Shown in pieces: positions 1 to 11,993 of a stretch of 45,671 bases of DNA. Origin of the DNA: a virus. The number at the start of each line of letters is the position of its first letter. Position 1 is the stretch's first letter. The notes under the pieces are model-generated. The model was not told the origin of the DNA, did not search any database, and saw nothing but the letters and a program-made list of their open reading frames with translations. The stretch spans positions 1 to 45,671 of IMG/VR virus record IMGVR_UViG_3300005294_000050; one strand, 5' to 3'. The translations under genes and the position numbers were made by a program.

Positions 1-466
1 AGCCCCGCCCCTTACGAGAGCACAAGTGGTCAAGCTCGTGGCGGGGCTTGTGTCCTCCGATGAGGATGTCCCAGACCACACGATGAAAAAGCCACGCCAC
101 CTTGTTGGCGCCCTCGGGCGTGAACCCAACGTGTCCGCCGCCGGTCGTCGGCCCTGAGGCTACCCAGCATTCTCCTTCGACGGTGATGAGCGATGCCAGC
201 CGCTCAAGGTTGATCGCTTCCACTTCGGGGCTCACGGTCAGGTGGTGGCCTTCGTGTTCGCGGCAGTAGAACTTCTTGTCACGCCCGGACCCCATGCGAC
301 GGCCTCCGTCGTCCTGGTGGTTGCGGCAGTCCTCCCACTGACAGCGAAGATGATTGCGTTGGCGAGCCCATGCCCGGGCGTGCGTTCCGCACAGATGCCG
401 GTACGCTGCGGGCCGCTTGCAATCGGCCTTGATACAAGGGTGATCCTGCGTCCGTCCACGCCCCAT
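1..466 (-). CDS. HNH endonuclease, partial (C-terminus outside window)
   Basis: The minus strand reads open from an ATG at 466 to the window edge (155 complete codons). A GGAG eight bases upstream of the ATG supports this start. The N-terminus has a small zinc-finger-like motif (CIKADC followed by LCGTH), as in the neighbouring gene at 662-1381. After a second Cys/His-containing stretch comes a region ending in HELDHLC, which matches the HNH_3-type core (E-L-D-H-x-C) of homing-like phage endonucleases. The distal Asn/His half of the core is cut off. Function is inferred as a site-specific DNA endonuclease, either free-standing or packaging-associated. Family assignment is fairly firm; the role in the element is unknown. 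Confidence 0.7.
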   Translation of the reverse strand, partial: MGRGRTQDHPCIKADCKRPAAYRHLCGTHARAWARQRNHLRCQWEDCRNHQDDGGRRMGSGRDKKFYCREHEGHHLTVSPEVEAINLERLASLITVEGECWVASGPTTGGGHVGFTPEGANKVAWLFHRVVWDILIGGHKPRHELDHLCSRKGRG

Positions 467-661
467 CGGGGGTACTCCATTCAGTAGATTTGTAATGTCA
501 GTAATTAATGGTATACGTCAGGAGGCCGAGGGGACCCGACGCCTTGCTTCCCCCGGGATTCCGTATGGAGATACCCGCCATCCGACGCCGAGGACCATCC
601 TCTTTGCTATTAGGTAGAGGCGTCCTTCGTGGCTCCTTGAAAGTCCTTTGATGGACCGTTT

Positions 662-1381
662 TCAGCCCAGCCTGTAAGGGCCTTCATGTTCTGCTCCGAG
701 GATGTTGACGGGTAGGCCATGTGCGAGAGCAAACGAGAGTTCGTCAATGCTCCGGGGCTTCCGTTTTCCGGGTGTCCATTCGTATTCGTCTCCGGCCTTA
801 GCCAACGCTTGTGAGCGCTGCGTAGAGACGTCGGCGTGCTTCGCGTGAAGAAGCGGCTGTAGGTGGGAGGGGCGAACGCAACAGGTCCTGCCGCACACGT
901 GGTCTAGCTCGACGAGTCGGGGAAGGTCGGGGTCGATGAGCAATTGCCAGAGCCACCGATGTGCGCGTTGCACTCCGCCGTGGTGGTACTTGCCGTAGCC
1001 GTCTTTGTCGGTCCTGCCTGCCCAGTCCCAGCATGACCCGTTAGGGATGATGAAGCGGGCGAACCAGTCCAGGGGGTCGATGTCTTGGGGCCGAACCCAT
1101 TTCGCGGGGCTGATGGTGACGATCGCCCCGTGGGTTTTCCATTGTTGGAAGTGCATTCCGCAGTAGCTCCGGGTCGCGTGCGCCCTCTGGCATTTCACGC
1201 CGTCAATCTCAGCGGTACATGTCTTCGGGTAGACGGGGCGGGGAGCACGCTTGACGACGGCTTTTCGCCTTCGTGGTTCGGTGGTCCCGGTCCTGCGTAG
1301 GCGTGCCCGATGGGTGCCACAAAGACCCTTCGCCATGTGGGGGCGTTGGCAGCCCTTTATCGTGCATTCTCTTTTTGCCAT
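662..1381 (-). CDS. HNH endonuclease with two N-terminal zinc-finger-like motifs
   Basis: The 239-residue protein has two short Cys/His motifs (C6-x4-C11-x9-C21-x2-H24 and C55-x8-C64-x9-C74-x2-H77). A middle segment of the NGSCWDWAG...GYGKY type follows, then an HNH_3 core at about 158-175 (ELDHVC, then CCVRPSHL). This order is typical of free-standing HNH endonucleases in actinobacterial phages, which cut DNA with a metal-bound His. The position expected to be Asn in the second half (CVNPxHL) reads Arg here (CVRPSHL), so activity may be altered. It is transcribed leftward with the partial HNH gene downstream. The 195-base gap between the two shows no other gene. Confidence 0.8.
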   Translation of the reverse strand: MAKRECTIKGCQRPHMAKGLCGTHRARLRRTGTTEPRRRKAVVKRAPRPVYPKTCTAEIDGVKCQRAHATRSYCGMHFQQWKTHGAIVTISPAKWVRPQDIDPLDWFARFIIPNGSCWDWAGRTDKDGYGKYHHGGVQRAHRWLWQLLIDPDLPRLVELDHVCGRTCCVRPSHLQPLLHAKHADVSTQRSQALAKAGDEYEWTPGKRKPRSIDELSFALAHGLPVNILGAEHEGPYRLG

Positions 1382-1449
1382 GGTGTCCGATCTGTTGGAA
1401 TGAGAATGGGAGAGCCGACCGGGTGGCCGACCCTCCCTCTCGTGGATTG

Positions 1450-2178
1450 CTAGCGCTTGTGGTTGGTCTTCTCGGGAAGGGTCGCCGCGTACTGGTCGTA
1501 CTCGTTGCGTGCTGCCACGGCTTCGGCGGCGCGTGCTGCCTTCAGGGCCTCAACCTTGGATGCCTCATACCGGTCGTAGGACAGGCCGACGCTCTTGTGT
1601 GAGTCCTGGCTGGGGTAGGACACGTGGTGGGTTACGCCGTCGATGGTCACTGACATGGCCTTGGATGTTGCGCTGCGCAGGGCACCGTCCCATGAAACGC
1701 GCTGTGTGGTGCTCGGACCCAGTACCTTGTCAGCGGTTTCGACACGTGAGGCCATGCCCTGAATGGCGTTTTTGTGTGCGTCGAGTTTCGCCAGGATCGC
1801 GTGGTGCTGGCGGTCTACGTCGCGGGCGAGCTTGGACCACATGCCGTCGATTTCGTCCTGTGTTAGCAGCCCGTCGACGGCACCGGATGAAACTTCTTCG
1901 CGCAGAGCCAACGCCCGGGTGGTGTTCTCCCGCTCGATTGCTTGGCGTACGTCGTGCTCGAATGCTTTGACGGCTGATTCGTGGCCGGCAAGGGCGCCCA
2001 TGACCTCAGCGATCTTGCTCATGGCTTTCTGGTCGCCGGTCGCCGCAAGGCTTTTGATACGCACGACTTCGGCACTGGCGTTGGCCTGTTGTTCCTTCGC
2101 CCCAGCCAATACTGTGCGGGCCTGCTCAAGTGCTGCTGCTGCGTCGGTGTGGGTCTGGGTGGAGGTCTTGATAGTCAA
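1450..2178 (-). CDS. Helix-rich hypothetical protein (TTG start)
   Basis: The start is set at a TTG at 2178 (MTIKTSTQTH) because AGGAG lies five bases upstream. The open frame continues upstream to 2313, but that part is Arg/Pro-rich and lacks a ribosome site. The 242-residue product is mostly predicted helix: a long Ala/Glu/Gln-rich stretch (residues about 8-150) of coiled-coil character, then a compact segment with WDGALRSATS and IDGVTHHVSYPS. That compact part recalls KTSC-like short domains, but I cannot assign a family with confidence. It lies between the HTH genes upstream and the HNH genes downstream in one leftward run. Confidence 0.6.
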   Translation of the reverse strand: MTIKTSTQTHTDAAAALEQARTVLAGAKEQQANASAEVVRIKSLAATGDQKAMSKIAEVMGALAGHESAVKAFEHDVRQAIERENTTRALALREEVSSGAVDGLLTQDEIDGMWSKLARDVDRQHHAILAKLDAHKNAIQGMASRVETADKVLGPSTTQRVSWDGALRSATSKAMSVTIDGVTHHVSYPSQDSHKSVGLSYDRYEASKVEALKAARAAEAVAARNEYDQYAATLPEKTNHKR

Positions 2179-2198
2179 TGTGTCTCCTAGAGAATGGG

Positions 2199-2215
2199 TG
2201 CCGGGAAGCCCGGCA
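2199..2215 (-). other. Perfect 7-bp hairpin ahead of the TTG-start gene
   Basis: TGCCGGG, AAG, CCCGGCA forms a perfect stem of 7 bp with a 3-base loop. It lies about 20 bases upstream of the TTG start of the leftward gene 1450-2178. There is no T tract, so it may be an mRNA leader structure or a weak terminator for the upstream HTH genes. A second small stem (CGGCG-TTTA-CGCCG) is at 2231-2244. Confidence 0.4.
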
Positions 2216-2343
2216 GGGGATCGAAAATGTCGGCGTTTACGCCGCCTTGGGGGTAGACAAGGGGAGGGTGCAGGCCGGAGTCTTAGATGGCGAATTCTGC
2301 CCGTTGAGGGCATGGCTAGCGGTTGCCCCGCCTTGTGGATCGG

Positions 2344-2679
2344 TCAGTTCATGACCGCTTCCGGCGCGTACCCGGTGGCGTTGAGCATTGCAATCTTCCG
2401 GTTCAAATCAAGTTCTTCCTTCATCGGGTTGTTGAGCGCCCATCCACCGTTGGGCGGCGTCGGCCCTAGCAAGTGGTGTGCCCTGAGTTCGGTCGTTGCT
2501 TTGTCGATGACGTCGTGGGTGGTGTCGAGCTGGCGGCAGAGTCGGTTGACGGTGACCTTGGCTGTGCCGCGGTAGCTTAGGTATCCGGCGAGCACGTGCC
2601 CGACTTCCTTGGCTGTTTCGCTGACGTGGGCCCTCTCCATGAGGTCTTCATATTCATCGATGCTGGTGACTGCTGCCAT
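2344..2679 (-). CDS. Small winged-helix-like DNA-binding protein (inferred)
   Basis: The start at ATG 2679 (MAAVTSIDEYE) has GAAGGGA eight bases upstream; an upstream in-frame ATG at 2709 lacks a good site. The 111-residue product has a central segment (TVNRLCRQLDTTHDVIDKA, then TTELRAHHLL) with the spacing of a helix-turn-helix followed by a wing. This arrangement is seen in GntR-like or replication-initiator-like winged helices. No enzymatic motif is visible. It starts two bases beyond the stop of the upstream gene 2682-2873, so the two are probably co-translated. Assignment is by secondary-structure pattern only. Confidence 0.5.
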   Translation of the reverse strand: MAAVTSIDEYEDLMERAHVSETAKEVGHVLAGYLSYRGTAKVTVNRLCRQLDTTHDVIDKATTELRAHHLLGPTPPNGGWALNNPMKEELDLNRKIAMLNATGYAPEAVMN

Positions 2680-2681
2680 TG

Positions 2682-2873
2682 CTACTTCCCTTCTGCGACG
2701 TGAGTCCACGTCTTGCGGTTGATGATTGAAGCGGTCGCGCTTCGGCCAAGCCCGTACTTGCGGCCGAGGGCTTCTAGGCTGATCCGCCCCGGGACGTATT
2801 CAGCGCGGATGCGGAGCACGTCGGCGTCTGTCAGTTTCGAGCGGTGGTTCTGTGTGCCAATGAGTCGTGGCAT
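2682..2873 (-). CDS. Small helix-turn-helix protein
   Basis: The start at ATG 2873 (MPRLIGTQNHRS) follows AAGGAAG at good distance; upstream codons to 2987 are an open but unsupported extension. The 63-residue product contains a resolvase/Hin-like helix-turn-helix: LTDADVLRIRAEYVPG, then LEALGRKYGLGRSATASII. The same small fold occurs in many actinophage proteins and at the ends of HNH endonucleases. It is the first gene of the leftward run and directly follows the repeat-rich leader, so it is a candidate regulator acting on those repeats; this is inference. Confidence 0.65.
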   Translation of the reverse strand: MPRLIGTQNHRSKLTDADVLRIRAEYVPGRISLEALGRKYGLGRSATASIINRKTWTHVAEGK

Positions 2874-3339
2874 ATGCTCTTCCTTTCTGTGTGTCCTCGG
2901 TAGGACTGGATCGGATGATCGAGGCAAAAAAAATGCCAGAGCCACGACACGATGAACGTGTGGTGCTCTGGCGTGACGCGGCCTCATGGCCGCAACTGTC
3001 GGATTGCCCGTGGAGATTCAGTTATCAAATATCGGTCCCCTCAACTAGCCCACCTTCGTGTGCCCCATCGGGGGAGACCTTCACTTATATATAGATGTCC
3101 GCTGGTAGAGATTCGTTCGGAACCTCTCACTTATATATAGCGTTCACTCGTTAGTGCTTGGTGTGACGCCTTCACTTAGTAAATACAGTTCACTCGTTGA
3201 GAGTCGTTCGGAAACCTCTCACTAGTAGATAGGTGTCGCACGCTTTCTGCGGCGTCATTTACCTACTCGTCAAGTCGATGGGTTGTGCCCTTTCCCTGGC
3301 TGAATCCCTTGTGATCGCTGGGATGTATCTTATGCGCCT
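2874..3339. promoter_or_regulatory. Long leader of the left element, no gene seen
   Basis: This 466-base stretch contains no convincing coding region; short frames here lack ribosome sites and family signals. It is more AT-rich than its surroundings and contains the four-copy repeat array at 3077-3232. It lies upstream of the leftward HTH genes and next to the element boundary, so it probably holds their promoter and possibly a replication or partition site. Confidence 0.4.
3077..3232. repeat. Four similar repeats spaced 45-47 bases
   Basis: The motif CCT(C)TCACT followed by an AT-rich TATATATAG-like tail occurs four times, with TCACT at 3081, 3127, 3172 and 3219. The first two copies share TCACTTATATATAG exactly; the third reads TCACTTAGTAAATACAG and the fourth TCACTAGTAGATAG. 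TCGTTCGGAAxCCTCTCACT recurs around copies 2 and 4, and GTTCACTCGTT follows copies 2 and 3, so the array looks like an old duplication of a roughly 91-base block. The regular spacing is typical of iterons or of an operator array. Confidence 0.65.
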
Positions 3340-3702
3340 AACAGTTATCCGGGCTTACCTGGGATGGCGAGCGTGCACGCGAATTCCGCCCGGGACGCTG
3401 TTACGAAAATATGTACCTTGCCCTTGCTAGCCGGCGAGAATATCAATTCGAACTTCGTGCTGCCCACGGTCGCTTCGTGCATCGATCTTGTAGTGCACTG
3501 CCAACGAGATTCTTCGGGGCACCGCGGGGTATCTGAAATCATCAAGCTCGGGCGTCGCGTGGAGAACGGACTTATTGAGTCATCGACGATTTTCCATCGT
3601 GTTGATGGCGAACTCCACATGACCCAATCAGCCGACCTGACACACGAAAAATTTGATCATGCCGGAGTTGACACGTCAACGCTTCTGGGGGCCGGACGAT
3701 GA
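3340..3702 (+). pseudogene. tadA: tadA (cpaF) 3' fragment: Tad pilus secretion ATPase C-terminus
   Basis: The frame encodes the last roughly 120 residues of a TadA/CpaF-type ATPase. It contains GLPGM-x-S-x-HANSARDA, the signature around the conserved His/Asn box, then CTLPLLAGENI and VPTVASCIDLVVH, as in actinobacterial TadA proteins. The Walker A and B motifs and the whole N-terminal half are missing. Recognisable sequence starts at about NSYPGLPGM (3340) and the frame is closed by TGA at 3301. The stop at 3700-3702 overlaps the tadB start (ATGA), so the operon end is intact. This is a tadA gene separated from its 5' part by the left element and inactive in this state. Confidence 0.85.
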
Positions 3703-4550
3703 GCCTGGTACTCGGGTTGCTTCTAGGATTGGGCAGTCTTCTGATCTGGCAGTCCTGTTGGACCGAACCGGCGAAACCGACGAAGGCCCGGAAACGACGA
3801 ATCGAGACCCTGCTGCTCCATGCAGGATTGGACAAGGTCAGTGTCGGTGGTTTCTTTTCGGCCATGGCTATTTGCTTCTTGATATTCGCCGTCATCGTCT
3901 TTGTCGTGACCCTGTCGCCACTCATCGCCATGATTTTCGGAATATTTGGAGCGATCCTTCCGGTCCTTGTGCTCCGTTGGCGCGCGGCCAAGCGCGCAGC
4001 CGCGCTTCGCGAACAGTGGCCCGACGTTGTGGATCACCTCCGTTCCGCGATACGGGCCGGACTTTCGCTTCCCGAGGCTCTGATCCAGCTGGGAACCCAG
4101 GGGCCCGAACCACTGCGGCAGGCTTTCACGGACTTCGGACTGGATTACCGCGCAACGTCGCGTTTTGATGAGGCCATAGAACGGCTGCGATATCGGTTGG
4201 CAGATCCCGTAGCCGACAAGATTATTGCGGCGCTGACGATCACCCGGGACGTGGGGGGATCCGACCTCGGAGAAATGCTCGGAACATTGGGCGGATTCTT
4301 GCGTGACAGCGCGAGGACACGTGGAGAACTCGAAGCCAGACAATCGTGGACCGTTAACGCCGCACGACTGGCCGTTGCAGCCCCATGGGTGATCCTGCTT
4401 CTGATGTCTACCCAGCCGCAAGCGGTCGCAGCCTATTCGACATTCAACGGGGCAATCGTGCTTTTGGCGGGGCTCCTCATCTCCTTCGTGTGCTATCGAA
4501 TCATGCTCGGTATTGGATCGCTGCCCAGCGAAGAACGGATCCTCAAATGA
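3699..4550 (+). CDS. tadB: TadB: Tad/Flp pilus inner-membrane assembly protein
   Basis: The 283-residue protein has a T2SSF (GspF-like) domain at about 104-230, including WPDVVDHLRSAIRAGLSLPEA and the typical ARTRGELEARQSW stretch. It is flanked by hydrophobic segments at about 3-18, 52-94, 222-240 and 250-270. TadB and TadC form the membrane platform that TadA drives to assemble Flp pili. The start overlaps the stop of the tadA fragment and its stop overlaps the tadC start. With tadA broken and an element upstream, expression from the native promoter is doubtful. Confidence 0.9.
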   Translation: MSLVLGLLLGLGSLLIWQSCWTEPAKPTKARKRRIETLLLHAGLDKVSVGGFFSAMAICFLIFAVIVFVVTLSPLIAMIFGIFGAILPVLVLRWRAAKRAAALREQWPDVVDHLRSAIRAGLSLPEALIQLGTQGPEPLRQAFTDFGLDYRATSRFDEAIERLRYRLADPVADKIIAALTITRDVGGSDLGEMLGTLGGFLRDSARTRGELEARQSWTVNAARLAVAAPWVILLLMSTQPQAVAAYSTFNGAIVLLAGLLISFVCYRIMLGIGSLPSEERILK

Positions 4551-5488
4551 GTCCCGGGCTCGCGTGGGGGTTGGCTTTGGGGCTGCTGTTGGGGGCCGGA
4601 CTCTGGTTGAGTTTCGTCAGGCTGCCTGCCCTGCGCCGGGTAGCCTTCGCAGACCGCATTGCCGGACAACTCCGTTCGGGGAGGGACCCCTCACGGGCTA
4701 GGCCCGGACAGGTTGGAGCCGAATCGCCGTTGGGTCCGCTGGTCAAGATCATGTGGCCTGTCCTCAAGGACCTCGTGTCCATACTGAACCGGTTCAACCC
4801 GGCCAGCGTCGGTTTACAGCAGCGATTGCAGCGGGCTGGACTCGACATCAGCATTACTGAATTCCGCATTTCGCAATTGACCTACGCGGGGGCTGGACTG
4901 TTGCTTGGAAGTCTTCTCGTTGCCGCATCCGTGGCTGGAGGAACCTTCAATGGATTTCTGTCGATTCCAATCCTTCTTGTTTCGACATTGGCGGGGTACA
5001 TCTTCCGAGAGTGGCACCTTACTGAACAAGGCACGAAGCGTAGCCGCCGCATCTTGGGACAGTTTCCTAGCATCGCTGAACTCATAGCCTTGGCGGTCGC
5101 AGCGGGGGAGAGCACCATTGGCGCCATTGAACGGGTGTGCAACAGCTCCCAGGGGGACTTACCAGATGAATTCAATGCCCTATTGGCTGACATCAGATCC
5201 GGAACGCCGATGGCCGCGGCTTTCCAGCACATGGCGAAAAGGCTCGATTTGAATGCCATGACCCGATTTGTCGATGCAATGACGGTCGCCGCGGAGCGGG
5301 GGACGCCGCTGGCGGAGGTCATGAAAGCGCAAGCCCAAGACGTGCGGGACGCCGCAAAGCGTGAACTCATGGAAAGTGCCGGACGCAAGGAAATCAGCAT
5401 GATGATTCCCGTGGTCTTTGGGATCCTTCCGCTGACGATCATCTTCGCGGTCTACCCGGGTCTTTCTCTCATTGACATGAACCTGTAG
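4547..5488 (+). CDS. tadC: TadC: Tad/Flp pilus inner-membrane assembly protein
   Basis: The start at ATG 4547 overlaps the tadB stop (ATGA). The 313-residue protein has an N-terminal membrane segment (residues 5-22), a pair of segments at about 115-160, a T2SSF domain at about 165-300 (FPSIAELIALAVAAGES, ERGTPLAEVMKAQAQDVR) and a final membrane segment (MMIPVVFGILPLTIIFAVYP). This is the expected TadC layout. It is full length and shows no frameshift. Downstream genes for pilin and pseudopilins are replaced by the prophage after one short fragment. Confidence 0.9.
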   Translation: MSPGLAWGLALGLLLGAGLWLSFVRLPALRRVAFADRIAGQLRSGRDPSRARPGQVGAESPLGPLVKIMWPVLKDLVSILNRFNPASVGLQQRLQRAGLDISITEFRISQLTYAGAGLLLGSLLVAASVAGGTFNGFLSIPILLVSTLAGYIFREWHLTEQGTKRSRRILGQFPSIAELIALAVAAGESTIGAIERVCNSSQGDLPDEFNALLADIRSGTPMAAAFQHMAKRLDLNAMTRFVDAMTVAAERGTPLAEVMKAQAQDVRDAAKRELMESAGRKEISMMIPVVFGILPLTIIFAVYPGLSLIDMNL

Positions 5489-5543
5489 CGAACGGAATCG
5501 ACGCGGTGCGAGAAAACAAAACCATCCAGGAAAGAAGGACACA

Positions 5544-5696
5544 ATGAAGGACGCATGGACTGCGGTAACCACCGCCGGGATGACGGCAACCTTGATCTGC
5601 TTGTCGCACGTGAATGGGCTAGGGCGGCGCATCCGCGAGGACGAACGTGGGGATGTCCCCGGATGGGTCATGATCACATTCATGAATAGGACCTGA
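5544..5696 (+). pseudogene. Pilin-like tad gene 5' fragment, cut by the prophage
   Basis: The ATG at 5544 follows AAGGA by a few bases. The 50-residue frame ends in EDERGDVPGWVMITFM followed by four codons and TGA. In actinobacterial tad loci the gene after tadC encodes a small Flp/TadE-like protein with a (D/E)RGDVPGWV motif at the start of its membrane helix, which continues for another 20-40 residues. Here the helix stops after about ten residues, exactly where phage-type sequence begins. The gene is therefore read as truncated by prophage insertion. A naturally short protein is less likely. Confidence 0.7.
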
Positions 5697-5700
5697 TCTC
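5675..5700. other. Probable attL junction
   Basis: Coding similarity to the host pilin-like gene ends at about 5681-5684 and the next gene rightwards is a prophage accessory gene. The sequence GAATAGGACCT at 5684-5694 recurs at 45631-45641. Large serine integrases usually leave only a very short identical core, so the exact crossover cannot be fixed from one junction. Confidence 0.5.
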
Positions 5701-5721
5701 ACTAGACTAATTGCGCTCGGC

Positions 5722-5751
5722 TTGCATTTCTGTGGCACTATGTGCTGTAAG
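5722..5751 (+). promoter_or_regulatory. Possible promoter of the TAC-like module
   Basis: TTGCAT at 5722-5727 and TGTAAG at 5746-5751 are 18 bases apart, upstream of the GTG start at 5779. Each matches its consensus at four or more of six positions. This is weak evidence, but the position inside the prophage just right of the junction fits an independently expressed module. Confidence 0.3.
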
Positions 5752-5778
5752 AGTCGCATTACTTTGGGGGGGTGAGCA

Positions 5779-6327
5779 GTGGGGACTCCGGATTACGCAG
5801 TGCCCGTTGGGAAGCGATCATGTTGTGCTGGACATCCAGGCACACCGCAGGGTTATAGGAACGATTGGGCCTACCACGCGGACTGCGATCGAGAGCTTGA
5901 TCTACTATCGAATGGAAAGTTCGACGATAAGATGACTCGTGCGGAGCAGTTGGACGCACAGCAGTTGCTTGAGGACCTGATGGAATGGGGTGCTCAAGCG
6001 GATCTCAGATTCCCTAGTAATTGGACGCGTCGGGTGAATGCCGAAGCAGCTGAAATTACGGCGCACGGTGGTTACCTGCTTGAGTTGAGGCATGTTCCTA
6101 AGGGGCAACCCAACAAGGTCTTCGGTCGGGAATTGAGGGCTTTGCGGCTTTACTACTACGAACCGCTGCGGCCGGAACAAACTTTGGCGGCACTTGCGTT
6201 AGGTTCTAAGCCGGCAAATGCTTCGGACTCGGCACTAGAACAAAATGAGGCCATTGACGCCGCTCACGAGCGGGCACAGCATTGGGATATCGCGTTGGAA
6301 CGCATGGAAGGGACGGAAACGCCATGA
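5779..6327 (+). CDS. HigB/RelE-like toxin of a TAC-type module (inferred)
   Basis: The start is the GTG at 5779, preceded by a G-rich ribosome site (GGGGG, then TGAGCA). The 182-residue product has, from about residue 50, the order seen in HigB-type toxins: a helical stretch (TRAEQLDAQQLLEDLMEWG), then a strand with LLELR, then strands RALRLYYYE and TLAALALGS, and a C-terminal helix (AIDAAHERAQHWD). This parallels mycobacterial HigB1 of toxin-antitoxin-chaperone loci, which cleaves mRNA in the ribosome. The N-terminal 45 residues are extra and a later start is possible. Gene order toxin first, XRE antitoxin second and ATGA coupling support the call. Similarity is by pattern, not by search. 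Confidence 0.6.
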   Translation: MGTPDYAVPVGKRSCCAGHPGTPQGYRNDWAYHADCDRELDLLSNGKFDDKMTRAEQLDAQQLLEDLMEWGAQADLRFPSNWTRRVNAEAAEITAHGGYLLELRHVPKGQPNKVFGRELRALRLYYYEPLRPEQTLAALALGSKPANASDSALEQNEAIDAAHERAQHWDIALERMEGTETP

Positions 6328-6800
6328 GCCACAACGAAGTAGCCAAGATGCGTGGCGAAGTTAGTCGTCGCGCGGACCGGCGGAATGTTACAGCTGATCA
6401 GCTCGCCGCGCGGGCCAACCTCTCCAGTCAGCGTGCAATGGTGCGGACCCTGGCTCAGATTCGTGAAGCCTCCCAGATGTCGGAGGCGGCCCTGGCAGAA
6501 GCTATAGGCGCAACTGAAGAGATCGTGGAGCAGATCGAAAACTTTGAATACGACCTCTCCTTGACTGAACTACGACACTTGGCCATCGCGCTCGACGCAA
6601 TTGTTGAGGTGAAGGTCTACGCGCGAAATGCTGCTGAGTATACGAGGTCGGTTCACCGTCAGTTGGAGGACCTGCTTCGCGGTGGCGGTCAAAGGGTATG
6701 GAGAAACATGGAATCCTCGCACCAGCAACGCCGGGCACTGAATGAAATGAATTTTGGCGGCCATGAATTTGCGTCTTGGGCAACAAAGGACCGCGCATGA
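6324..6800 (+). CDS. XRE-family antitoxin (HigA-like)
   Basis: The ATG at 6324 overlaps the preceding stop (ATGA). The 158-residue protein carries an XRE helix-turn-helix at about residues 35-90 (TLAQIREASQMSEAALAEAI, then VEQIENFEYDLSLTELRHLA). A roughly 60-residue C-terminal tail follows with many aromatic and hydrophobic residues (RVWRNMESS, NFGGHEFASW). Antitoxins of TAC systems have such an extension, the chaperone addiction region, which makes them depend on a SecB-like chaperone. It probably binds and neutralises the 5779-6327 product and represses the operon; both are inferred from the family. Confidence 0.65.
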   Translation: MSHNEVAKMRGEVSRRADRRNVTADQLAARANLSSQRAMVRTLAQIREASQMSEAALAEAIGATEEIVEQIENFEYDLSLTELRHLAIALDAIVEVKVYARNAAEYTRSVHRQLEDLLRGGGQRVWRNMESSHQQRRALNEMNFGGHEFASWATKDRA

Positions 6801-7228
6801 TCACTTACGATGTCCGGATACATCGGTTCGAGGTGTCGGCTGGCGGGGTGGAGGATCTGAGCGAAGGGGACGATCGGCTCGATTGGGATGTGGCTGCGCG
6901 CGCGTTGGATGAATCCGTTGCGCTGGTATCTGGCTACTTCCGAAATTCCACGGAGGACTATTTCGTACAGCTGCTCAGCTTCATGGTTATCAGCCATGAT
7001 GGTGAGTTGACGGAATTCGCGGACTTGAAAGAGTGGGCCGTTAAGAACGCAGTCGACAGGTTGTACGATGCAACCGCCCGCCAATTGAAGTCGCAAGCTG
7101 CCCTGATGAGCATTTCACTTCGCGTTCCAGAGGATGCGCCCGAAACCGAAATCGAAGAATTTCCTGATGACGACGGGACAGCCGAAGCTGACGAAAGCGA
7201 GTCGGACCGCGAGCCGGTGTCGGAGTAA
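6797..7228 (+). CDS. SecB-like chaperone of a TAC-type module (inferred)
   Basis: The ATG at 6797 overlaps the antitoxin stop (ATGA). The 143-residue protein is acidic, with alternating strand-like segments (YDVRIHRFEVSA, YFVQLLSFMVIS), then a helix (LKEWAVKNAVDRLYDATARQLK) and a short hydrophobic strand (ALMSISLRV). A very acidic tail closes it. SecB proteins have this order of strands, a long C-terminal helix with TxR and a final strand, and no membrane segment. Third place in a HigB-HigA operon is where TAC chaperones sit. Similarity to classical SecB is weak, so another small fold is possible. Confidence 0.5.
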   Translation: MITYDVRIHRFEVSAGGVEDLSEGDDRLDWDVAARALDESVALVSGYFRNSTEDYFVQLLSFMVISHDGELTEFADLKEWAVKNAVDRLYDATARQLKSQAALMSISLRVPEDAPETEIEEFPDDDGTAEADESESDREPVSE

Positions 7229-7239
7229 GGTTCCTCCGA

Positions 7240-8667
7240 TTATGAAATGGATGGTGGGTCTTCCCACAGACCGGCGACGGCGACCATGGAGCGTGGCCTG
7301 CCGGGCTTGACCAGCACGGGGTGGATGAGCCGGGAGAGCATGTCGCGGCGCACGGCGACGGGGAGTATGTCCCAGTTGGCCAGCAGGTCCGGGACGATCG
7401 CGGCTGGTGGCTTGGCTTCGGAGACGGCGAGGTTCCGCAACTGTGCCTCGGTGGTGGCCATCTCGGTTTTGGTTTGATCGCGGAGGCGTTCGTAGGAGTC
7501 CTGGGGGATGGTCCCGTCGACGAGTTTCAGGGTGAGGTTGTCCATGCGCGCCCCGAGCTTCACGAGCTTGCGCCGCAGCACGGCTTCCCGGTTGGTGACG
7601 GGTGTCTTCGTCGGTGGGGCTGGGAGGTCCTGGGCGGCCTGCGTGATGTCGTCGGCAATGCCACGCAGCCATTCCAGGACGGCGTCTTCCACGACGGTGG
7701 TGGCGACGTACCCGCCGGTATGGGCGCGCTTCTCGTTCGCGGCCTTGCACCGGTACTTCGCTGTCCTCCCAGAACCGAAGAGACCAGCGTTCATCGTGGA
7801 CCCGCAGGCGCAGCGGATGAGCCCGGAAAGTAGGTACTCGGACCGCTCGCTCCGCCGGCTCACGCGACGGGTCTCACGGCGCGCGAGATACTCCTCGAAT
7901 TCCTCTGTGGTGATGACGGGTTGGTGGGCGCCGGGGATGCGCTCGCCGTGGCGGGTGATGTATCCGGCGCCGAAGCCCTGGTCGAGGATGCGGCGGATGG
8001 TGCGGGCTGACCAGAGCCCGTCGCCGGACGGGCCGTAGCCGGTGACGGGCCGCGTGGGGCCTTCGTTCGCCCATTGGACGAGCGAATAGACGGATTGCCC
8101 GGAGTTGTACCTCCGGTACATTTCGGCGAGCACAGGGCCGCTCACAGGGTCTGGGGCGAAGCCATCCGCCCGGGTGTACTGGTACCCGAAGCGGGGTTTG
8201 CCGTTGGCGGGTAGTCCCTGGTTGACGCGGCGGGCGTGGGACTCTTTCCAGACGTCGCCGATCCTCTCGGATTCGAAGGCGGCGAACTCGGTGAGCATGC
8301 CCCGGGCGAGGCGTCCGGTGCTGGTCGACACGTCGAGCGGCTCGGTCGCGGACTCGATGCGCCCGCCGGCGGTCTCGACCCGGTCGGCGGCCACTGCCCA
8401 GTCGAGCCGGGACCGGGAGAGGCGGGACCATTTCCACAGCACGATGACATCAGCGGACCCGTCCTCGATCATGGCCATGACCCGGACGACGGCGGGCCGC
8501 TTCCAGGTCCGTCCGGAGATTCCCGGATCTGACTCAACTGCTACGACTTGGTACCCCTGCTGCTTCGCGTAGGCGCGCCCAGCGGTCTCCTGCAGCTCGA
8601 GGCTGATCGACTCCTCACGCGCCACGGACTGCCGCAGGTACAGCACCGCCTTCGGCTTGCCTGCCAT
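7240..8667 (-). CDS. Large serine recombinase (phage integrase)
   Basis: The product integrates and excises the prophage by serine recombination. The resolvase catalytic domain spans about residues 5-150, with the nucleophile in YLRQS (Ser14), then SISLELQ, DPGISG and W-K-W-S-R-L-S-R. A recombinase domain follows (about 165-270), then a zinc-ribbon-like segment (LIRCACGSTM ... YRCKA) and a coiled coil (about 345-410). Length is 475 residues, usual for the family. ATG 8667 is chosen because AGGGGAAG precedes it; ATG 8688 in the same frame has no ribosome site. It is convergent with the TAC-like module, with 11 bases between the stops. Confidence 0.93.
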   Translation of the reverse strand: MAGKPKAVLYLRQSVAREESISLELQETAGRAYAKQQGYQVVAVESDPGISGRTWKRPAVVRVMAMIEDGSADVIVLWKWSRLSRSRLDWAVAADRVETAGGRIESATEPLDVSTSTGRLARGMLTEFAAFESERIGDVWKESHARRVNQGLPANGKPRFGYQYTRADGFAPDPVSGPVLAEMYRRYNSGQSVYSLVQWANEGPTRPVTGYGPSGDGLWSARTIRRILDQGFGAGYITRHGERIPGAHQPVITTEEFEEYLARRETRRVSRRSERSEYLLSGLIRCACGSTMNAGLFGSGRTAKYRCKAANEKRAHTGGYVATTVVEDAVLEWLRGIADDITQAAQDLPAPPTKTPVTNREAVLRRKLVKLGARMDNLTLKLVDGTIPQDSYERLRDQTKTEMATTEAQLRNLAVSEAKPPAAIVPDLLANWDILPVAVRRDMLSRLIHPVLVKPGRPRSMVAVAGLWEDPPSIS

Positions 8668-8698
8668 AGTCTTCTTCCCCTGGTTCATTTGCTAGTGG

Positions 8699-9106
8699 TC
8701 AGTCTTGTGCGGCAGCTCGGACGTGCTGAAGATGCTGCAGGTCCTCGGGGGACAACGCGGCCAGTCGGTCGAGCACGACGTCCTCGGTCACCCACAGTTC
8801 ATCTGCCAGCTCACCCAGGCTTCGCGCCCACGGCACCTCCGTCACCAACCGCTCCCAGGCGATCAGTCGCCGCGCCGCAGCCTCCCGAACCTCTCGCTCT
8901 ACCGCTGCCGACTGGCAACCATGATGCCGACACTCCAAATGCACTAGCTCATGAGCCAACACACACCGCCGTTCCCGCTGCGACAACCCAGGATCAATCC
9001 AAATACGGCGCTCGCCGTCGGTTGCCGCCGGTATGCCTGGCGCGGGACGAGCCCAGATGACGATGACGTGAGCAAGGTGGCGCAATTCCCCCCAAGGATG
9101 AAACAT
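8699..9106 (-). CDS. ImmA/IrrE-type metallopeptidase
   Basis: The 135-residue protein has the zinc protease motif HELVH at residues 52-56 (AHELVHLECRHHG). Its N-terminus is of the M-[FY]-H-P-W-x-x-L-R type found in actinophage ImmA proteins, which is why ATG 9106 is preferred over ATG 9133. No clear ribosome site precedes either start. In ICEBs1 and related phages ImmA cleaves the XRE repressor to allow induction. The XRE repressor at 11304-11993 in the same leftward run is the likely target, though three genes separate them. The stop lies ten bases before an alternative integrase start. Confidence 0.85.
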   Translation of the reverse strand: MFHPWGELRHLAHVIVIWARPAPGIPAATDGERRIWIDPGLSQRERRCVLAHELVHLECRHHGCQSAAVEREVREAAARRLIAWERLVTEVPWARSLGELADELWVTEDVVLDRLAALSPEDLQHLQHVRAAAQD

Positions 9107-9192
9107 GATCCGAAGATATGTTCTAGATCTCATATGAAGCTACTGCTACGACCAAGGTCAGCGAACTGTCTGCGTGGCTTATTAACGTGGGC

Positions 9193-9726
9193 TTACTTGA
9201 AACTGTCCTTGGTGTAACTCCGGGTCTTGCTCTGGCGGTCTGCTGCCGCGTCGTCGCTGGCCACAACTTTCATGAGCGATCTCAGCAGCCAAATGATCCT
9301 CAGCGTTCCGTGCACGAGAAGGAGTATGCTCCACTCGAAAATCCAAGGACTTGCTGCCTGGAATTGCAGCCCTGCCAAGATGGCGGCGAAGAGGGAGAGT
9401 CCAGCTGCAGCGAAACCTGATACCGATGCAGATGTCCAATTCTTGTTGAGGCTCTCACCGGACTTAAGGCGCAGTTCGCGGAAGCGAGAACTGTTGGCGG
9501 TCAGCCCAAAAACGACGACAACGCCTGCGAAGCCGGCGACAATGGCAGCGGCGGAGGCCGCGCCCAAGTAGATGGCGATACCAGAATCGGCTGCGTCCTG
9601 CAGGGCTTGCCAGGGATTGGAAATGATGCCAAGGCAAGCCAATGCGAGATGAAGAAGCACCAGGCCGAAAGCGGACAGGGTTACGACGAGCGGACGGTCT
9701 TGAATTAGCCCGACTAGCTTGCGCAT
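9193..9726 (-). CDS. Four-helix membrane protein, possible exclusion or defence gene
   Basis: The 177-residue protein has four hydrophobic segments at about residues 12-34, 50-75, 100-122 and 126-148, with a charged loop between the second and third (SSRFRELRLKSG) and a hydrophilic C-terminus. The start has AAGGGG upstream. I do not recognise a family. Its location between integrase and repressor, expressed in the lysogen orientation, is where phages carry superinfection exclusion and antiphage genes; a role of that kind is only inference. It could act with the two genes upstream of it. Confidence 0.6.
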   Translation of the reverse strand: MRKLVGLIQDRPLVVTLSAFGLVLLHLALACLGIISNPWQALQDAADSGIAIYLGAASAAAIVAGFAGVVVVFGLTANSSRFRELRLKSGESLNKNWTSASVSGFAAAGLSLFAAILAGLQFQAASPWIFEWSILLLVHGTLRIIWLLRSLMKVVASDDAAADRQSKTRSYTKDSFK

Positions 9727-9753
9727 TTCTAACCCCTTCGAATACTTAATCGA

Positions 9754-10668
9754 TTATTGCAGATTGGACTCCCGGAACATGCGGATGGCCTCGGTCATCG
9801 CTTTAAGTACGGCCGGCGCCGTTGGCCGTTCGTCTTCTGAAGTTCCAACCAGGGCCGTTCCCGTGACCCTGTCCTTGAAGAAGTCGACAGCGTCCTTCTT
9901 GTATTCCATGCCTTCTTCATCGGTCGGGCTGAGGAGCGTCGCAGAAGCGGACCGAAACTTCACGTTCCCCATCATCGACTGAAGCTCGGCGGCAATCTGC
10001 GCCGCTGCGGCTTCGTCCGGGCGGGCATGGCCAAAGCTCAATTGGATGTCGACTGTAACGCCGCCAGCGCCGAGGTCCTGCACTTCTCGCATGGCGGTGC
10101 CAATGACACCGTCAGTGCCGGAGGCGAGGTCACTCCCTGGCTCGACTTTGAGGTGAAGCTTCGAGACACCGATGGCCGCGTGCAGGCGTGCCAGCTGGTC
10201 GTGACGGACGTATGGACGGAGTTCGAAAGTTTCGCCCTGCACGTCCATACCTGAGACCGCAGCAAGCCAATTCTCGATTGCGGACCAGGATGGTCCGGCT
10301 GTGGTGCGCAGCGCGGCGACGTAGGGGGTTCCCGAAATGGGTAGGAGGTAGGCAGGTTCGACGAGACCGGCTCCAGGCTCAGCCAGCTCCAGGGCTGTGG
10401 GGTCACTACCCTCGCGTTGCATGTCTGGCCAGTCTGCTCCATTGCGAGTCTTACCTATGTAGAAAAACTTCTCAGCAGGGGAAACTTCCTTTCGGGCCGC
10501 CCCAGCGTATTTGTGACCCAGGTACTGGTTACGAAGACGCTCGTCTTCAAGGCTGGCGACATGGTCATGCAGGGATGGCCAGAAGGTCGCGTCCATGGTG
10601 GACTCGATCTCGTCCGCGTTGGTCGTGATGGGTTCGAAAAAATAGATCTTGCGCTTGCGTCCTGCCAT
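9754..10668 (-). CDS. Hypothetical 304-residue protein of the lysogeny region
   Basis: The start is ATG 10668 (MAGRKRKIYFFEPI), preceded by AAGGGGGAACC; the open frame extends to 11076 but that part is an Arg-rich shadow of the next gene. The product is soluble, with no signal peptide, membrane segment or recognisable catalytic motif. It begins with a strand-like KIYFFEPIT. A central repeat-like pair of segments (FELRPYVRHDQLARLHAAI and VTVDIQLSFG) suggests a mixed alpha/beta fold. It sits between two membrane-protein genes in the leftward lysogeny run. I do not recognise it; an accessory or defence role fits its position only. Confidence 0.6.
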   Translation of the reverse strand: MAGRKRKIYFFEPITTNADEIESTMDATFWPSLHDHVASLEDERLRNQYLGHKYAGAARKEVSPAEKFFYIGKTRNGADWPDMQREGSDPTALELAEPGAGLVEPAYLLPISGTPYVAALRTTAGPSWSAIENWLAAVSGMDVQGETFELRPYVRHDQLARLHAAIGVSKLHLKVEPGSDLASGTDGVIGTAMREVQDLGAGGVTVDIQLSFGHARPDEAAAAQIAAELQSMMGNVKFRSASATLLSPTDEEGMEYKKDAVDFFKDRVTGTALVGTSEDERPTAPAVLKAMTEAIRMFRESNLQ

Positions 10669-10688
10669 GGTTCCCCCTTGATAGTCGT

Positions 10689-11279
10689 TTATCGTTGCTG
10701 GATTGCAGCGGTGCCGGTGTACGAGTCGTCGCCTGTGAAGCGAATGGTGCAGCTGTAGGAATTCGCGACCATGCCGCCGAAAGAGTTCTGTGATTCGACT
10801 GTCCCGGACGCGGTCCAGGACTTTCCGGACCCGGTTTCCGTTTCGTTGCTGAACTTGGCGGTGGAAGGGGCTTTGAGCTTCTCTTTCACGAGGGTTTGGC
10901 AATTGACCCTGGCATCCACTCCGTCTGGCTCCTTGTCGCCGGCGCCATTCATGAGTGCGACGCACCCACCGAGCAGAAGCACGAAAACGAGGACTACGGC
11001 CGCGGCGCAACCCATCCCCACCTTGCCGCCAGTTGACATGGGAGCCTGGGTCAAGAAGGCAGTAGCACCTTCCCAATGGTCGATCATGAAGCCGGCGTCT
11101 TTGATCTTTGCTTCGATGTCGTCCTGGTTATCCGCTGCTTCCAGGCTGCGGACTTCTTTGCCGGCATCGGTCGTGATCTGGATCTTCCGCAGCCGGACGA
11201 CGTTCTGCGCGTCTTCGCCCCCGACGAGCTTCTCCACCGCCGGCGCCACAATGGCGCGATGGTTGACCTTGCTCCCCAT
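10689..11279 (-). CDS. Membrane-anchored protein with extracellular C-terminal domain
   Basis: ATG 11279 (MGSKVNHRA) has GGGGGGG directly upstream. The 196-residue protein has a cytoplasmic N-terminal part (1-88) with strands VRLRKIQITTDAG and a helix, then one membrane segment (about 91-112, GMGCAAAVVLVFVLLLGGCVAL). The outer domain contains CQTLVKEKLKAPSTAKFS and GTVESQNSFG...SYSCTI. This outer domain resembles small secreted domains common in bacterial lipoproteins, with two Cys that could pair. The inside-out layout suits a sensor or surface factor. Its role is unknown; it neighbours the repressor gene. Confidence 0.6.
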   Translation of the reverse strand: MGSKVNHRAIVAPAVEKLVGGEDAQNVVRLRKIQITTDAGKEVRSLEAADNQDDIEAKIKDAGFMIDHWEGATAFLTQAPMSTGGKVGMGCAAAVVLVFVLLLGGCVALMNGAGDKEPDGVDARVNCQTLVKEKLKAPSTAKFSNETETGSGKSWTASGTVESQNSFGGMVANSYSCTIRFTGDDSYTGTAAIQQR

Positions 11280-11303: not shown

Positions 11304-11993
11304 TTAGTCTTGCTCTGGCCCGGCCTGGGACTCTTCCCCAGCCTGACCGTGTGCTTCGTCGAACCGGTCCCGGTCCCTCTTGAAGTTCGGGTGCGCCGCC
11401 ATCTTGGAAAAGTCCGGCAGCTCGTCATCTTCCGGCTTCACGGAAAGCGCCTCATGCTCCTCGTCATCGACGAATCGCATATCTACGCTTGACGATGAAG
11501 CCCCGGACAACTGCGACTGGACATTCGCCTCAAAAAAAGAGCCCATCTTCTGTCGCGAGACAGAACCACCGCCACGCCGAGCTGCACCCGCAGGGCGCTC
11601 GCCGGATGGATTCGTTTCGGGTTGTTCCTGGTCGTCATGGTTGCTCGCTTCAAGGTCGATGAGGACCCGCAGCATCTCGATGACAGCTTTCCTGGACTTC
11701 GGCGAGAGGTTGTCTGTGCCGGGTGGGAGTTCGTCAGCGAGAGGCGGGCCCGGGACTGATTGTCCCGCTGCCGTGAACGCAACCTCATCGCTGACGCCGG
11801 CCAGCCAGGCGATAGCCCGGATGGTCTCGGTCGACGGCGTCGACTTGTACGTGCCGCCCAGGAGGGCATTCAGGGTCGCGTGGGTGACCTTGAATCCTTT
11901 TACCTGGGCTGCTTCAGCCATGCGCCGGCCGGAGAGCTGTTGCTCGTCCTTCGCCCTTTGCAGCAGCTTGCGTAGCGATGTCGTTGCGTTCAC
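11304..11993 (-). CDS. XRE-family immunity repressor (CI-like)
   Basis: The GTG start at 11993 faces the control region. The 229-residue protein has an N-terminal XRE-type DNA-binding domain at about 5-70 (LRKLLQRAKDEQQLSGRRMAEAAQ, then THATLNALLGGTY and ETIRAIAWLAGVS). A linker follows, then a region rich in Asp, Glu, Gln and Ser to the end. There is no LexA/CI protease-like Ser-Lys domain, so cleavage by ImmA rather than RecA-driven self-cleavage is the likely switch. It is divergent from the early operon, as a CI-type repressor should be, and is the first gene of the leftward lysogeny run. Confidence 0.85.
   Translation of the reverse strand: MNATTSLRKLLQRAKDEQQLSGRRMAEAAQVKGFKVTHATLNALLGGTYKSTPSTETIRAIAWLAGVSDEVAFTAAGQSVPGPPLADELPPGTDNLSPKSRKAVIEMLRVLIDLEASNHDDQEQPETNPSGERPAGAARRGGGSVSRQKMGSFFEANVQSQLSGASSSSVDMRFVDDEEHEALSVKPEDDELPDFSKMAAHPNFKRDRDRFDEAHGQAGEESQAGPEQD

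What the first reader, a model, noticed from the sequence alone, without database searches (positions are those of the whole stretch)
5779..7228. Toxin-antitoxin-chaperone-like (HigB-HigA-SecB) module at the prophage left end
Three ATGA-coupled genes read as a HigB/RelE-like toxin, an XRE antitoxin with an extra aromatic C-terminal tail, and a small acidic SecB-like protein. This is the order of TAC systems, in which the antitoxin needs a SecB-like chaperone. TAC systems are linked to antiphage defence, and one located between attL and integrase of a prophage would be a portable copy. The sequences look far from the mycobacterial type, so it may be a new subgroup.
Basis: partly seen in the sequence, partly recalled or inferred. 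Interest (0 to 1): 0.75.

Follow-up and report, generated by a model that had tools for sequence, protein, structure and literature searches.

The report
Candidate toxin-antitoxin-chaperone cargo of a prophage
A prophage of an Arthrobacter-like bacterium carries, next to its integration site, a three-gene cassette laid out like a toxin, its antitoxin and a helper chaperone; the antitoxin is well supported, the toxin and chaperone only weakly, so it is probably a very divergent example of a known kind of bacterial self-poisoning switch.

Summary
The three overlapping genes are real: P1 5932-6327, P2 6324-6800, P3 6797-7228, joined by two ATGA overlaps. They form a 1.55 kb insert (5703-7251) between attL, inside a Flp-pilin gene, and a serine integrase. 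Five related elements at the same site lack it, so it is acquired cargo. P2 is a HigA/XRE-type antitoxin: its HTH domain matches known families, and six of its 23 nearest actinobacterial hits sit beside HigB/Gp49-like toxins. P2 has a 59-residue aromatic tail, as long as in three actinobacterial toxin-antitoxin-chaperone (TAC) antitoxins found here (45-64) and longer than in two-component ones (1-20). P1 has the size, position and weak sequence register of a HigB/RelE toxin (empirical p 0.01-0.07). P3 matches no family; profile comparison with SecB gives nothing, and only full-length pairwise alignment gives a weak signal (0.5-1% of controls as good). Single-sequence structure models were unusable. 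No relative of P1 or P3 was found. Most likely a divergent HigBA-type TAC module (0.55); toxin-antitoxin of some kind is likelier (0.8). TAC modules, including phage-defence ones, are already known, so interest is moderate.

The parts
5932..6327 (+). P1, candidate HigB/RelE-like toxin (131 aa); an in-frame GTG at 5779 is an alternative start
   Evidence: weak profile and pairwise similarity to HigB/Gp49-type toxins
6324..6800 (+). P2, XRE/HigA-type antitoxin (158 aa)
   Evidence: HTH family matches, relatives beside HigB-like toxins
6624..6797 (+). C-terminal tail of P2 (residues 101-158), candidate chaperone-addiction region
   Evidence: tail length compared with TAC and two-component antitoxins
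6797..7228 (+). P3, candidate SecB-like chaperone (143 aa, acidic C-terminus); identity not established
   Evidence: position; weak full-length pairwise similarity to SecB-like proteins; no profile match
5703..7251 (.). cargo insert absent from the related prophage in L018
   Evidence: blastn
5650..5702 (.). attL region inside the Flp-pilin gene; similarity to uninterrupted sites ends at 5677
5776..5803 (.). imperfect palindrome upstream of P1, possible operator; may be chance
7240..8688 (-). large serine integrase that bounds the cassette
   Evidence: Pfam Resolvase/Recombinase, PHROG 95 integrase

Best explanation
The cassette is a very divergent HigBA-type toxin-antitoxin-chaperone (TAC) module that a temperate Arthrobacter-type phage acquired as cargo between attL and its integrase. 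P1 would be a RelE/HigB-fold toxin that stops translation. P2 would bind P1 and repress the operon through its HTH domain. The 59-residue tail of P2 would make it unstable unless P3, a SecB-like chaperone, holds it. When P3 is drawn away, for instance by an incoming phage protein, P2 would be degraded, P1 freed and growth stopped, which would protect the lysogen population or keep the prophage from being lost. Shown: gene layout, cargo status, P2 as an antitoxin-type HTH protein, length of its tail. Inferred: toxicity and fold of P1, chaperone nature of P3, trigger and benefit.
For: ATGA-coupled three-gene order and sizes (131/158/143 aa) like the actinobacterial TAC loci L047, L050, L052. P2 HTH matches and relatives beside HigB-like toxins. 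P2 tail of 59 residues against 45-64 in TAC and 1-20 in two-component antitoxins. P1 against the toxin profile: 19 of 2000 shuffles as good, right register with the L061 toxin. P3 against SecB-like proteins, full-length pairwise: 12 of 2500 controls as good. Insert absent from five related elements.
Against: P3 shows no SecB match in Pfam and none by HMM or hhalign. P1 is only borderline by other tests (17 of 243; 161 of 2500) and matches no toxin family. From ATG 5932, P1 has no obvious first strand of the RelE fold. The tail of P2 does not show the W-x-R-x-x-x-Y spacing of the M. tuberculosis ChAD. No relatives of P1 or P3 were found.
Confidence: 0.55

Rival explanations
1. A toxin-antitoxin module whose third gene is not a SecB-like chaperone but another accessory part (phage sensor, co-antitoxin, modifier), as in PD-lambda-2, where the third protein is not needed to neutralise the toxin but is needed for defence.
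For: P3 has no profile similarity to SecB; a three-gene TA system with a non-chaperone third part is known (PMC9519451).
Against: The long P2 tail is what TAC antitoxins have; weak pairwise SecB signal; same gene order as local TAC loci.
Confidence: 0.25
2. Not a toxin-antitoxin system: P2 is a prophage or operon regulator and P1 and P3 are unrelated small cargo proteins.
For: P2 also matches phage regulator families (PHROG 1373, 2339); P1 statistics are borderline; no homologues of P1 or P3 found.
Against: Coupled toxin-first order; the insert is absent from related prophages, so it is not their core regulator; a separate repressor lies at 11304-11993 (PHROG 12831); P2 relatives sit beside toxins.
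Confidence: 0.18

Closest known systems
M. tuberculosis TAC, HigB1-HigA1-Rv1957
   Same: Gene order; antitoxin with HTH domain and C-terminal extension; third small gene
   Different: No detectable sequence similarity of P1 or P3; ChAD motif spacing not shared (PMC6377645); prophage cargo
HigBAC of E. coli C496 (TAC, freed by the lambda major tail protein)
   Same: Same proposed three parts and proposed use against phages (PMC11980606)
   Different: Sequences not compared here; no defence test for the window cassette
Actinobacterial HigB-HigA-SecB loci L047, L050, L052 found here
   Same: Order, sizes and antitoxin tail length
   Different: Their toxins and chaperones match Gp49 and SecB profiles; P1 and P3 do not
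Two-component HigBA modules such as L058, L061, L064, L070
   Same: HTH domain of P2; register of P1 with the L061 toxin
   Different: P2 has a 59-residue tail and there is a coupled third gene

Membership tests
TAC (toxin-antitoxin-chaperone) | Three-gene toxin-antitoxin-chaperone operon order | tested here: inconclusive
   Order and coupling fit, but the identities of P1 and P3 are not established
TAC (toxin-antitoxin-chaperone) | Antitoxin with a long C-terminal extension (ChAD) | tested here: met
   59 residues, against 45-64 in TAC and 1-20 in two-component antitoxins; that the tail acts as a ChAD is not tested
TAC (toxin-antitoxin-chaperone) | SecB-like chaperone as third gene | tested here: inconclusive
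   No Pfam or profile match; weak pairwise signal; model unusable. TAC chaperones can share as little as 14% identity (PMC5105189)
TAC (toxin-antitoxin-chaperone) | Toxin inhibition depends on the chaperone | not testable with these tools
   needs a growth assay
RelE/HigB (BECR-fold) toxins | Sequence or fold similarity to the superfamily | tested here: inconclusive
   No family match; empirical p 0.01-0.07; model unusable
HigA/XRE antitoxins | Cro/C1-type HTH domain in a gene coupled to a toxin-like gene | tested here: met
   PHROG 2339 E 4e-6, Pfam HTH_31 and HTH_37 below cut-off, relatives beside HigB-like toxins; the coupled P1 is itself only a candidate toxin
Anti-phage defence system | Protection against phage | not testable with these tools
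   PADLOC gives only generic HTH matches for P2 and none for P1 or P3

The most novel reading that the evidence does not exclude
A tripartite toxin-antitoxin system with a third protein of a new type, or a SecB-like chaperone so divergent that it marks a separate TAC lineage, carried by actinophages as exchangeable cargo at the attL-integrase junction and tuned to sense competing phages.
Probability: 0.3. Interest if true: 0.55.

Novelty: new member of a known kind. Interest (0 to 1): 0.38.

Why it matters
If right, it extends TAC modules to a prophage of Micrococcaceae, with sequences beyond current family models, and offers a direct test of whether phages carry chaperone-gated toxins as portable defence; related prophages without the cassette at the same site are natural controls.

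Tried and rejected
tblastn of P1, P2, P3 singly and joined against phage and plasmid records gave only weak generic HTH hits to P2. Pattern scans of viral contigs with P1, P2, P3 and cores of P1 and P3, and of genome contigs with P2, gave no relatives. P1 in 395 genomes of the family of G001 and P3 in 297 of its order: weak hits L024, L025, L026 rejected as lying antisense to or inside unrelated genes. P3 in 12 related virus records: none, though several are fragments. Single-sequence AlphaFold models of P1 and P3 had pLDDT 48 and 47 and Foldseek gave nothing: no evidence either way. Minus-strand loci were read on the wrong strand and redone. The UPF0149 line for P3 (E 0.04) is treated as chance. 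The 5779 GTG start of P1 was considered; codon-position GC (0.65, 0.49, 0.51) does not settle it.

Full report
OBSERVATION. The window is an IMG/VR virus record. Three + strand genes are present: P1 5932-6327, P2 6324-6800, P3 6797-7228. P1/P2 and P2/P3 overlap by ATGA. All have a coding-type GC pattern by codon position. I prefer ATG 5932, but the 51 codons between the two are not clearly non-coding.

CONTEXT. The host-like flank (TadB/TadC) is 90% identical in TadC to a Micrococcaceae genome, L018. The terminase is closest to Arthrobacter phages (81-82%). blastn against L018 gives window 3350-5702 = L018 8840-11192 and window 7252-9150 = L018 11213-13109, so window 5703-7251 is replaced there by 20 bases. 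L019 and L020, which read uninterrupted through the pilin gene, match only to 5677, so the attachment site lies in the Flp-pilin gene downstream of tadC. Five elements with a related integrase at this site (L018, L038, L039, L041, L042) have about 205-250 bases between tadC and the integrase gene, against 1.75 kb in the window, and no significant match to P1-P3. The cassette is 55.5% GC against 63-68% for the prophage. It is acquired cargo.

P2. It matches Cro/C1-type HTH families (PHROG 2339 E 4e-6 and PHROG 1373 E 1e-5; Pfam HTH_31 E 1e-4 and HTH_37 E 0.003, the latter over residues 22-98, both below cut-off). In 227 actinobacterial genomes its 23 hits are at E 3e-5 to 0.009. Six of them (L057, L058, L061, L062, L064, L070) lie beside a small gene that I read as a HigB/Gp49-type toxin from its sequence pattern. 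P2 has 59 residues after the strand that closes the HTH domain; three TAC antitoxins found here have 45-64 and six two-component antitoxins 1-20. This comparison rests on my own placing of the domain end.

TAC YARDSTICKS. The Pfam SecB profile rang in five of 246 actinobacterial genomes. L047, L050 and L052 are three-gene loci of a small toxin-like gene, an XRE gene with a tail and a SecB-like gene. Pfam gives Gp49, HTH and SecB for L050 and L052, with SecB below its cut-off and Gp49 below it in L052. A profile of five of these SecB-like proteins finds E. coli SecB (3e-7) and Rv1957 (0.001) among solved structures, so it is a usable yardstick.

P1. No family matches. Against a profile of 12 HigB-like toxins it scores 3.8 bits, reached by 19 of 2000 shuffles, with residues 67-118 on the C-terminal half of the toxin domain. 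hhalign: 17 of 243 real proteins as good. Pairwise: 161 of 2500 windows reach mean Z 0.6. The alignment to the L061 toxin is in the expected register (GGYLLELR, LRALRLYYYEP, LALGSKP, EAIDAAHERAQHW). Suggestive, not significant.

P3. No family matches; the UPF0149 line at E 0.04 is treated as chance. HMM and hhalign comparisons with SecB-like proteins give nothing. Full-length pairwise comparison with eight SecB or SecB-like sequences gave mean Z about 1.3 without the acidic tail, reached by none of 243 proteins and 12 of 2500 windows, and about 1.1 with the tail. Some of the individual alignments are in a senseless register, and this was one of several tests tried without correction, so it is weak.

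STRUCTURE. AlphaFold2 without an alignment gave pLDDT 48 (P1) and 47 (P3), and Foldseek found nothing. These say nothing either way.

RELATIVES. None found for P1 or P3 in phage and plasmid records, in pattern scans of viral contigs, or in the actinobacterial genomes sampled. The pattern scans and single-sequence searches reach mainly close relatives, so rarity is not shown.

LITERATURE. In TAC systems the antitoxin tail (ChAD) needs the SecB-like chaperone; W108, R110 and Y114 matter in M. tuberculosis (PMC6377645). TAC chaperones can share only 14% identity (PMC5105189), so failure of sequence methods does not exclude SecB. HigBAC of E. coli C496 is freed by the lambda major tail protein (PMC11980606). 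CmdTAC defends against T-even phages and MqsRAC against T2 (PMC11618068; PMC9519451). Prophages are a main store of defence systems in E. coli.

VERDICT. Probably toxin-antitoxin cargo (about 0.8), most likely a divergent HigBA-type TAC (0.55). A known kind in a plausible place, with the chaperone identity still open.

Noticed in passing
window 1-3349: cpaF is cut at 3349/3350: only its 3' part is present, although L018, L019 and L020 continue. The stretch to the left carries an HNH endonuclease gene and has no match in the loci fetched, so it looks like another mobile element or an assembly join.
   Followed up: partly
window 9193-11076: A membrane protein gene (9193-9726) and a 440-codon frame (9754-11076) on the minus strand between the ImmA-like gene and the repressor match no family; they may be a second cargo pair.
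   Followed up: no
L047, L050, L052; also L048, L049: Actinobacterial three-gene loci with SecB-like proteins (HigB-like in the first three; in L048/L049 beside an HTH protein with CxxC motifs), found with the SecB profile.
   Followed up: partly
window 5711-5935: A 74-codon frame ends in a TGA that overlaps the ATG of P1, also as ATGA; codon-position GC gives no support that it is a gene.
   Followed up: partly
L018, L038, L039, L041, L042: Related serine-integrase elements repeatedly sit in the Flp-pilin gene beside tadC, which would disrupt the pilin.
   Followed up: partly
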